A stretch of DNA of 37,951 nucleotides, from assembly GCA_016182615.1 (NCBI GenBank), contig JACPGF010000142.1, positions 1-37,951 on the forward strand, written 5' to 3'. The notes beneath the pieces are model-generated. The model had not been told where the DNA came from. It saw only the letters and a list, made by a program, of their open reading frames with translations, and made no database searches. This stretch comes from Ignavibacteriales bacterium (GTDB taxonomy: Bacteria; Bacteroidota; Ignavibacteria; Ignavibacteriales; Ignavibacteriaceae). Made by a program: the position numbers and the translations under genes. Positions 8,111 to 27,929 of the stretch are shown here, piece after piece (the stretch's first letter is position 1; each line of letters begins with the position of its first letter).

Positions 8111-9024
8111 AAAAAGTTTTCACTCAACAACAGATCCCTTGCCCGCCCAAAGCCGAACAGACGGCCGTTCTTTCATGTAATCCCCGTGCTATACTACGAT
8201 TGCTTCGTTCCGTATAAGGAGAGCTTGTTTAATTAACCCCAAATACAAACTGCACTTTAATTCAGCTTACGTCTTTATACAAAAATGTACAAGTATAAAA
8301 CCAACATTAAAATTTGAAGCATATTTGCACGATTAGAATATAATTATTTTTTTTGCAAATAGCAATTTTTTTAATATTTATTTTGTTCATATTTCATAAC
8401 TCATACGCTGGCAAAGCCAGAAGCGAAAATCTGTAAATATAACTACTCAAGCCTGATGGAATATAGACAATTAGAATTCATTGCCCCGAATGGGGCTAAA
8501 TCTGAGTAACCGCGGGTTCCCTACCCGCGGAACACAAACGAACAGAGCCTCCGTCCCCGAACGGGGGCGAACCTTGTGTCATTAAATAGATACCTTTAAC
8601 TGTTCGAAAATGATGTGAACACATGTAAGAAATATCAGAAAAATTGAAATTGTTGCAACTCAACATTGAGGTTCGCCCCCTTCGGGGACGTTTTCGCTGT
8701 TGGATTCTCTTTCCGTGGGTTTCACCCACGGTTAATCAGATTTAGCCCCGTTGGGGCATTTGAAAAAGAATTTTCCCTTTTCGCATCAACCTTAGCTATT
8801 TTGCAAACAGCTACGATAACTCCTCGCAATGAGGCTCAAAAAAAACTTTTCACATTTGAGATTAATTTAACTGCTTATGGAATAATTAAATGAAAAGGCC
8901 ATCTCAAAGAAATAAATTTTTAACTATTCTAACTGTAAAAGCACATGGAAAAATTTCTATTTATTTTCTTCAAGACAGCCATGTCAACCTACCGAAACTA
9001 TATTTCTTCTATCTATTCCGGTAT
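8111..9024. other. Gene-free spacer between XRE gene and amt
   Basis: No supported gene. The main content is the large hairpin-bearing inverted repeat at 8481-8760 (listed separately) and, at 8440-8450, a copy of the TAACTACTCA motif found at the ends of the element at 11701-12021, with no matching right end in view. The remainder is A/T-rich. Confidence 0.6.
8481..8760. repeat. Large imperfect inverted repeat built of paired hairpins
   Basis: The left arm (8481-8574) and right arm (8670-8760) are reverse complements over about 90 bases with mismatches, enclosing a 95-base loop. Each arm has three local hairpins: GCCCC/GGGGC (8483-8496; 8746-8758), CCGCGGGT/ACCCGCGG (8510-8530) matching CCGTGGGT/ACCCACGG (8714-8732), and a CCCCG/CGGGG pair (8555-8567; 8677-8688). 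The inner ends GGGGGCGAACCT (8563-8574) and AGGTTCGCCCCC (8670-8681) are exact complements. There is no reading frame worth naming. The shape resembles bacterial REP/BIME-type repeats or a non-autonomous element. Confidence 0.8.
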
Positions 9025-11634: not shown

Positions 11635-11693
11635 ATCATGTATCAGAATCTCCCGGAATTTACTGCAAACTGAAGGGTGACCTGATACATGAT
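11635..11693. repeat. Perfect 12-base inverted repeat with 35-base loop
   Basis: ATCATGTATCAG (11635-11646) and CTGATACATGAT (11682-11693) are exact reverse complements. The pair ends 7 bases before the left end of the element at 11701. It has no T-run, so it is not a typical terminator. Confidence 0.7.
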
Positions 11694-11700
11694 CAAAATA

Positions 11701-12021
11701 TTGTAACTACTCAGCTCATCTCTATAAAAGCTCCCATCTCCTAACCTCAGACTTTCACGAAGTGATGGAAACCCATAGTCTGAGGCATCCCAACCCATCT
11801 AATCACAGGCTTAAGCCACTGGATATTGATTTGAAATTATAAAGCAAAATTTAGTGGCTTGGCATCCACTCCTTTGGAGAAAGCCTGATGTTTAGTGGTT
11901 ATTTAAACCTCAGACTAAAGTCTGAGGTTAGGTCATAAAAATTTCGCTGTACTTTTTCAGCTGTTAATTTTAGTTAAACACCAAAACTCGACTTTATTTC
12001 ACCTAAGTTGAGTAGTTACAA
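11701..12021. mobile_element. Miniature transposon-like element (MITE-like), 321 bases
   Basis: The ends are a perfect 13-base terminal inverted repeat: TTGTAACTACTCA at 11701-11713 and its reverse complement at 12009-12021. The four bases before the left end (11697-11700) and after the right end (12022-12025) are both AATA, as expected for a target-site duplication. Inside are further inverted repeats: CTAACCTCAGACTTT near the left (11740) pairs with AAAGTCTGAGGTTAG near the right (about 11919-11933), and ATCACAGGCTT..AGCCACT pairs with the AGTGGCTT...AAGCCTGAT block. There is no reading frame, so it would need a transposase supplied elsewhere. No named family is recognised from the ends. 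Confidence 0.65.
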
Positions 12022-12032
12022 AATATCAAAGG

Positions 12033-26302: not shown

Positions 26303-26811
26303 AATCCGTCGCTCAAATTGGCAATATCTAAAAATCATTATTAATATTACCGGAATTAAAACCTAATTTGAAACGGATTTTGCTAAATACCGACTACCTG
26401 TATTATCAGGTGTTGTTTGTTAAACTGGTAAATTCTCATTACGCAGTGGACTTTTATTCCTCTCCTTTACAACAATAGTAATGGGCAATTACAAATCTAT
26501 TTCGTTCCTACGGAACTTTGAAATGGCTTGGTGGCCGTTTTGCTAGAGATATTTCGTCCCGCTGGGACTTAGGGCTTAAGAAATAATATGAGGAAAATAT
26601 CCATGATTTTGGTCGAATTCTAATTTTTTCGCCCTAACAGTTTTAAACCAGATTATTATATTATATTTACTCAGTCCCATCGGGACGAAACCCGCCCAGG
26701 CGGGTAGAAAAAAATAAACAAAATGATCTTAAGTTCCGTAGGAACGAAATAGGTTCAACAGATTATTGAGAAGTTACTTAAAGTGTTAAATTTAAAATAA
26801 AGTCAAAGATT
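26303..26811. other. Spacer carrying a paired-hairpin element
   Basis: No gene is supported. Nearly the whole spacer is occupied by the element at 26428-26777 (listed separately). The hydrolase gene that follows has only a weak ribosome binding site. Confidence 0.5.
26428..26777. repeat. Paired-hairpin element, possibly with degenerate terminal repeats
   Basis: The inner arms are clear. ATTTCGTTCCTACGGAACTT (26499-26518) is the exact reverse complement of 26731-26750, and ATTTCGTCCCGCTGGGACT (26551-26569) faces AGTCCCATCGGGACGAAA (26673-26690). The outer ends GTAAATTCTCATTA (26428-26441) and TATTGAGAAGTTAC (26764-26777) match as inverted repeats at 12 of 14 positions, similar to but weaker than the ends at 11701-12021. 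The left arm is homologous to 15576-15646. An extra hairpin, CCCGCCCAGGCGGG, sits at 26691-26704. Confidence 0.7.
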
Positions 26812-27616: not shown

Positions 27617-27929
27617 GTAACTACGCTGTCGTTAAATATTTTCAGTCGCCGGAGGTAGGAAATTTTTCCTGCCTACCGGGCAAGTAAAGTAGCTGTGAAA
27701 AAAACAAATTAAAAGTCCCAGCGGAACGAAATTATTATTTTGAGAATGCTAAATATCCAATATTTAGTTTTACTGTCGTGCTGTTGGCACTTTTTAAGCA
27801 GTAGATGTATATTTTTCTACCATTCACATAGTGATGGATGCCCAAATTTCGTCCCGCTGGGACTACGAAAACGATTAAAAGATTTTTTTAAGATCATTCG
27901 GTGCTTTTAATTCTCCACTGAGTAGTTAC
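27617..27929. repeat. Second paired-hairpin element, possibly MITE-like
   Basis: Inner arms AGTCCCAGCGgAACGAAAT (about 27714-27732) and ATTTCGTCCCGCTGGGACT (27846-27864) pair at 18 of 19 positions; the latter is identical to 26551-26569. The outer ends GTAACTAC (27617-27624) and GAGTAGTTAC (27920-27929) repeat the terminal motif of 11701-12021 in inverted orientation, though only 8 bases match exactly. The length, 313 bases, is close to the 321-base element. The element fills most of the spacer between the hydrolase and arsR genes. Confidence 0.6.

What the first reader, a model, noticed from the sequence alone, without database searches (positions are those of the whole stretch)
11697..12025. 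321-base element with perfect 13-base ends and AATA flanks
Seen: TTGTAACTACTCA and its exact reverse complement bound the element, AATA precedes and follows it, and it has internal nested inverted repeats but no gene. Inference: a non-autonomous transposable element. I do not recognise the terminal repeat, so the family may be undescribed.
Basis: partly seen in the sequence, partly recalled or inferred. Interest (0 to 1): 0.6.

Follow-up and report, generated by a model that had tools for sequence, protein, structure and literature searches.

The report
IS66-end MITE with palindromic repeat core
The 317-base element is one of about 40 related, gene-less jumping-DNA copies in this Ignavibacteria genome: its ends are those of a known transposon family (IS66, ISBst12 group), but its hairpin-rich core looks borrowed from the flanks of an unrelated IS200-type transposase, so it is a hybrid of two mobile-DNA systems.

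Summary
The element is real and is a MITE, but its ends are not undescribed. The true ends are GTAACTACTCAG (11703 and 12019). Related copies lie at about 40 places in the genome. Of 39 elements chosen by their ends alone, 20 have an 8-bp duplication (at least 7/8; control 1.2%), and other lengths show nothing comparable. The end motif bounds both sides of 44 of 80 single-gene IS66-family elements from many phyla (shuffled control 0.05). It also matches ISDge4, an ISBst12-group IS66 element seen to transpose with an 8-bp repeat (PMC12898284). No IS66 transposase was found in this 90%-complete assembly, and the copies are 70-91% identical, so the family looks old. The core is an inverted pair of hairpin repeats homologous to the flanks of an IS200-type Y1 transposase gene in the same genome. 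A second MITE family with the same ends carries repeats of a different Y1 gene, and another genus carries a relative of that second family. This hybrid make-up is the new part. Exact 20-21-nt present/absent modules at hairpin tips remain unexplained. Interest moderate.

The parts
11703..12019 (.). Whole MITE, 317 bp (family A)
   Evidence: Ends and duplications shared with other copies
11695..11702 (.). Left copy of the target duplication, AAAATATT
   Evidence: 7/8 match to the right copy
12020..12027 (.). Right copy of the target duplication, AAAATATC
   Evidence: 7/8 match to the left copy
11703..11716 (+). Left terminal inverted repeat, GTAACTACTCAGCT
   Evidence: Same motif bounds single-gene IS66-family elements
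12006..12019 (-). Right terminal inverted repeat, read inward GTAACTACTCAACT
   Evidence: Inverted repeat I1
11740..11785 (.). Hairpin repeat 1 of the core, homologous to the flank of a Y1 transposase gene (L104 1349-1394)
   Evidence: 91% over 46 bp, E 1e-13
11755..11775 (.). 21-nt module at the tip of hairpin 1, present in some copies and absent in others with the same borders
   Evidence: Alignment A2
11808..11817 (.). Hairpin 2, GGCTTAAGCC, here without its tip module
11856..11885 (.). Hairpin 3, with a 20-nt tip module at 11860-11879
11880..11954 (.). Right half of the core, including hairpin 4 (11908-11927, CCTCAGACTAAAGTCTGAGG), homologous to the flank of the Y1 gene (L104 1220-1298)
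   Evidence: 81.7% over 82 bp, E 3e-14; hairpin site
27617..27929 (.). Second element in the window with the same kind of ends and a different core (family C), duplication TATGGACT/TATAGACT
   Evidence: 7/8 duplication
26428..26777 (.). Probable decayed element with related ends, duplication TTAAACTG/TTAAAGTG and an inverted pair of other hairpins
   Evidence: ends differ at several bases, so less certain
8481..8758 (.). Inverted pair of family-B-type hairpin repeats without a clear pair of IS66 ends

Best explanation
The element is a MITE moved in trans by an IS66-family transposase of the single-gene ISBst12 type. That enzyme recognises GTAACTACTCAG at both ends and makes an 8-bp staggered cut, giving the 8-bp duplication (shown: ends, duplications, shared motif; inferred: the enzyme and the act of transposition). 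Its core is a REPIN-like inverted pair of hairpin repeats from the unit of an IS200-like Y1 transposase (shown: homology to flanks of Y1 genes; inferred: direction and route of capture). The family amplified some time ago and has since diverged; no transposase source was found in the assembly.
For: About 40 places in the genome. 8-bp duplications in 20 of 39 elements chosen by ends alone, control 1.2%, no other length comparably enriched. 44 of 80 IS66-family single-gene elements have the motif at both ends, shuffled motifs 0.05, 12 with 8-bp duplications; same-class IS66 elements L114, L116, L113, transposases confirmed by Pfam and NCBIfam. ISDge4 ends and 8-bp repeat (PMC12898284). Core homologous to Y1 gene flanks: L104 for family A, L105 and L107 for family B. 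Same ends and a family-B-like core in G013 of another genus.
Against: No IS66 transposase in the own genome (assembly about 90% complete, 489 contigs). The MITE arms match known IS66 elements only in the outermost 16-23 bp, so no parent element is identified. No transposition or empty site was observed. Which way the core repeats travelled is not shown.
Confidence: 0.85

Rival explanations
1. The Y1 (IS200-like) transposase itself spreads the whole element as a REPIN-like unit, and the GTAACTACTCAG ends are only the outer part of its recognition sequence.
For: The core is homologous to Y1 gene flanks, and family B repeat pairs also occur without IS66 ends.
Against: Y1 (HUH) transposases are not expected to make target duplications (established knowledge), yet 8-bp duplications are frequent. 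The Y1 loci lack these ends, and the ends are those of IS66 elements.
Confidence: 0.06
2. The core came first inside the IS66-ended MITE, and the Y1 genes took their flanking repeats from the MITEs rather than the reverse.
For: Of the family A hairpin sites listed, nearly all lie in MITE copies; I found exceptions only at the Y1 gene (C289), at C50 and at C396, and C396 looks like a decayed MITE by eye.
Against: Family B repeats occur at many places without IS66 ends, and two families carry repeats of two different Y1 genes, which reads more simply as repeated capture.
Confidence: 0.2
3. The hairpins are a conserved structured RNA or regulatory element carried for its function.
For: Very stable predicted fold, z -10.6 as RNA. 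The element lies between genes, its right duplication ending 5 bp from the end of a sodium:solute symporter gene.
Against: The stability is expected of inverted repeats. Consensus folding gives no covariation support (covariation term +1.14), and no Rfam family matches above its cut-off.
Confidence: 0.05

Closest known systems
IS66 family, ISBst12 group (e.g. ISDge4 of Deinococcus geothermalis, PMC12898284)
   Same: Terminal motif (GTGACTACTCAGCA / GTAACTGCTCAGCA in ISDge4) and 8-bp target repeat
   Different: The element has no transposase gene and matches such elements only in the outermost bases
Bacterial MITEs as listed in PMC3733652 (e.g. RUP, NEMIS, Nezha)
   Same: Short, gene-less, terminal inverted repeats, dispersed, strong secondary structure
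   Different: IS66-type ends; I found no published ISBst12-end MITE in the library searched
REPINs and REP dimers with RAYT genes; TIRtrons (PMC3733652, PMC3116915)
   Same: Core is an inverted pair of hairpin repeats found also on either side of a Y1 transposase gene
   Different: Bounded by DDE-type ends with target duplications; no GTAG or CGTC tag seen by eye on the family A hairpins; the Y1 proteins fail the NCBIfam REP-associated model
REP dimers inserted in longer palindromes (Anabaena variabilis GTAG-15, Halothiobacillus neapolitanus CGTC-1; PMC3733652)
   Same: A palindromic repeat pair sits inside another palindromic sequence
   Different: There the outer palindrome is not assigned to a transposase family; here it is IS66-type with 8-bp duplications

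Membership tests
MITE | Short, no coding capacity, terminal inverted repeats | tested here: met
   317 bp, no ORF of 80 aa or more, inverted ends
MITE | Multiple dispersed copies with target duplications | tested here: met
   About 40 places; 20 of 39 with 8-bp duplications
IS66 family, ISBst12 group (ends) | Terminal repeat shared with autonomous single-gene IS66 elements | tested here: met
   44 of 80 loci with the motif at both ends, control 0.05
IS66 family, ISBst12 group (ends) | 8-bp target duplication | tested here: met
   Only 8 bp comparably enriched; focal copy 7/8
IS66 family, ISBst12 group (ends) | Transposase in the same genome | tested here: not met
   No PF03050 match in the about 90%-complete assembly; not required of a MITE
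IS66 family, ISBst12 group (ends) | Mobilisation of the element by that transposase | not testable with these tools
   Needs an assay
REPIN / REP-RAYT system (core) | Inverted repeat pair homologous to repeats flanking a Y1 transposase gene | tested here: met
   L104 for family A, L105 and L107 for family B
REPIN / REP-RAYT system (core) | The Y1 enzyme is a REP-associated tyrosine transposase | tested here: not met
   NF047646 at 20.8 and 24.2 bits, cut-off 80; both pass the IS200/IS605 model NF033573, cut-off 55
REPIN / REP-RAYT system (core) | GTAG or CGTC tag at the foot of the hairpin | tested here: inconclusive
   None seen by eye on the family A hairpins; family B hairpins read CGTCCCC...GGGG, but the AT pairs at the base of CGTC repeats (PMC3733652) are missing

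The most novel reading that the evidence does not exclude
A recurrent hybrid class: IS66/ISBst12-ended MITEs that repeatedly take up the hairpin repeat pairs of Y1 transposase units, so that a DDE transposase, not the Y1 enzyme, does most of the spreading of those repeats; with hairpin tips that gain or lose an exact 20-21-nt double-hairpin module.
Probability: 0.35. Interest if true: 0.6.

Novelty: new variant of a known kind. Interest (0 to 1): 0.42.

Why it matters
It ties an unassigned repeat to a transposase group for which transposition was only recently reported, and shows two unrelated transposition systems joined in one small element, in at least two families in this genome and in another genus. 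PMC3733652 left open whether palindromic repeats can be carried by transposases other than their own; this is a concrete case where that can be tested.

Tried and rejected
A 4-bp AATA duplication with TTGTAACTACTCA ends: rejected, only 8 bp is clearly enriched. An autonomous partner on C41:6848-9067, suggested by two GTAACTACTCCG matches 2.2 kb apart: rejected, it holds a methyltransferase-like gene and a one-ended MITE remnant. The IS66 remnants of G013 as the source: their ends read GTAACTGTTTAG, a different variant. Structured RNA: no covariation support, no Rfam match above cut-off. Plain internal deletion of a known IS66 element: arms do not match beyond the ends. The E-values are for a small set of 12 loci.

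Full report
Observation. Comparing copies moves the ends in by two bases: GTAACTACTCAG at 11703 and, inverted, ending at 12019; 317 bp.

It is a mobile family. DNA search of the own genome finds it at about 40 places (79 matching pieces). The family was found only in this species among those compared: no match in 40 relatives including the one same-genus genome. I selected 39 elements in own-genome loci by their ends alone (up to 4 mismatches in total). Of these, 20 have an 8-bp duplication with at least 7 matches, 9 of them exact, where swapping flanks between elements gives 1.2%. No length from 3 to 7 or 9 to 12 shows a comparable excess. The focal copy is 7/8. Eighteen aligned full-length copies are 70.5-91.1% identical, median 84%, so there is no sign of a recent burst.

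The ends belong to IS66, ISBst12 group. IS66-family elements in the same class have similar ends: L114, 1537 bp, GTAATTACTCAG and GTAACTACTCAG; L116, 1552 bp; L113, 1565 bp, GTTACTATTCAG. An alignment of their transposases (PF03050) brought in 80 loci from many phyla. In 44 the motif with up to 2 mismatches stands at both ends, in 12 of them with a duplication of at least 7/8; 40 shuffled motifs gave a mean of 0.05. Such an element of Oscillatoriales (L156) has GTAACTACTCAGCTTA and the duplication TTAAAGTT. Published ISDge4 has GTGACTACTCAGCA and GTAACTGCTCAGCA, an 8-bp repeat and observed transposition, and is placed in the ISBst12 group (PMC12898284). Organism names come from NCBI titles (L137, Ignavibacteriales bacterium; L153, Ignavibacteriae); that the window is from Ignavibacteria is inferred, because the same-class genome G107 carries the same IS66 element as L137.

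The partner is missing. No IS66 transposase lies in the assembly. The MITE arms match IS66 elements only in the outermost 16-23 bp.

The core. Between the ends lie four hairpins arranged as an inverted pair. They match the flanks of an IS200-like Y1 transposase gene at C289 (L104): 82 bp at 81.7% (E 3e-14) and 46 bp at 91% (E 1e-13). A second family with the same ends but an unrelated core (B: L035, L082, L089) matches the flanks of two other Y1 genes, L105 (E 4e-12) and L107 (E 2e-10, a broken gene); at L105 the repeats stand inverted on either side of the gene. The Y1 proteins of L104 and L105 pass the IS200/IS605 model and fail the REP-associated model, so I do not call them RAYTs. The Y1 loci have no IS66 ends.

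How general. In 391 genomes of the class, exact ends 259-289 bp apart occur in six. In G013, of the same bacterial family but another genus, they occur 8 times; the five copies read have a core like family B, one of them with an exact 8-bp duplication. G088 also shows hairpin repeats, and G317 has an exact duplication but a different core. In the own genome most listed family A hairpins lie in MITE copies, while family B repeats also occur at many places without IS66 ends. Repeated capture is therefore the simplest reading, but the route is not shown.

Tip modules. At the tips of the four hairpins a 20-21-nt module (NNNN-GAA or AAA-NNNN-TGGATNCCA) is present or absent with the same borders in the aligned copies. 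One version stands in the outer hairpins (1 and 4), the other in the inner ones (2 and 3). The first also occurs beside the Y1 gene of L104 and in family C. I cannot say whether this is gain or loss.

Function. Consensus folding gives no covariation support for a conserved RNA. I regard the element as a relict MITE; an effect on transcripts of the neighbouring symporter gene is possible but untested.

Noticed in passing
11755-11775, 11860-11879 and the homologous sites in other copies (alignment): A 20-21-nt double-hairpin module is present or absent with the same borders at the tips of four hairpins, in two sequence versions; one version also occurs in family C at 27833 and beside the Y1 gene of L104.
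   Followed up: partly
27617-27929: Another element with the same kind of ends, a 7/8 8-bp duplication and a different hairpin core; a 147-bp partial relative is L036.
   Followed up: partly
26428-26777: Decayed IS66-like ends, 7/8 duplication and an inverted pair of GTTCCTACGGAAC and GTCCCGCTGGGAC-type hairpins: possibly a fourth core type.
   Followed up: partly
8481-8758: Inverted pair of family-B-type hairpin repeats without a clear pair of IS66 ends; one ATAACTACTCAA lies upstream at 8439.
   Followed up: partly
11635-11646 and 11682-11693: Perfect 12-bp inverted repeat ATCATGTATCAG / CTGATACATGAT, 35 bases apart, just before the element and upstream of the DUF480 gene.
   Followed up: no
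L264 1501-1789 (G261): Exact IS66-type ends around a core with GTCATTCCAGCACGTGTGGGAATGAC, which resembles a CGTC/TGTC-tagged REP; no target duplication.
   Followed up: no
L103 (G000:C260): Another Y1 transposase gene amid arrays of CCCCTACGGGG-type hairpins, not linked to these MITEs.
   Followed up: no
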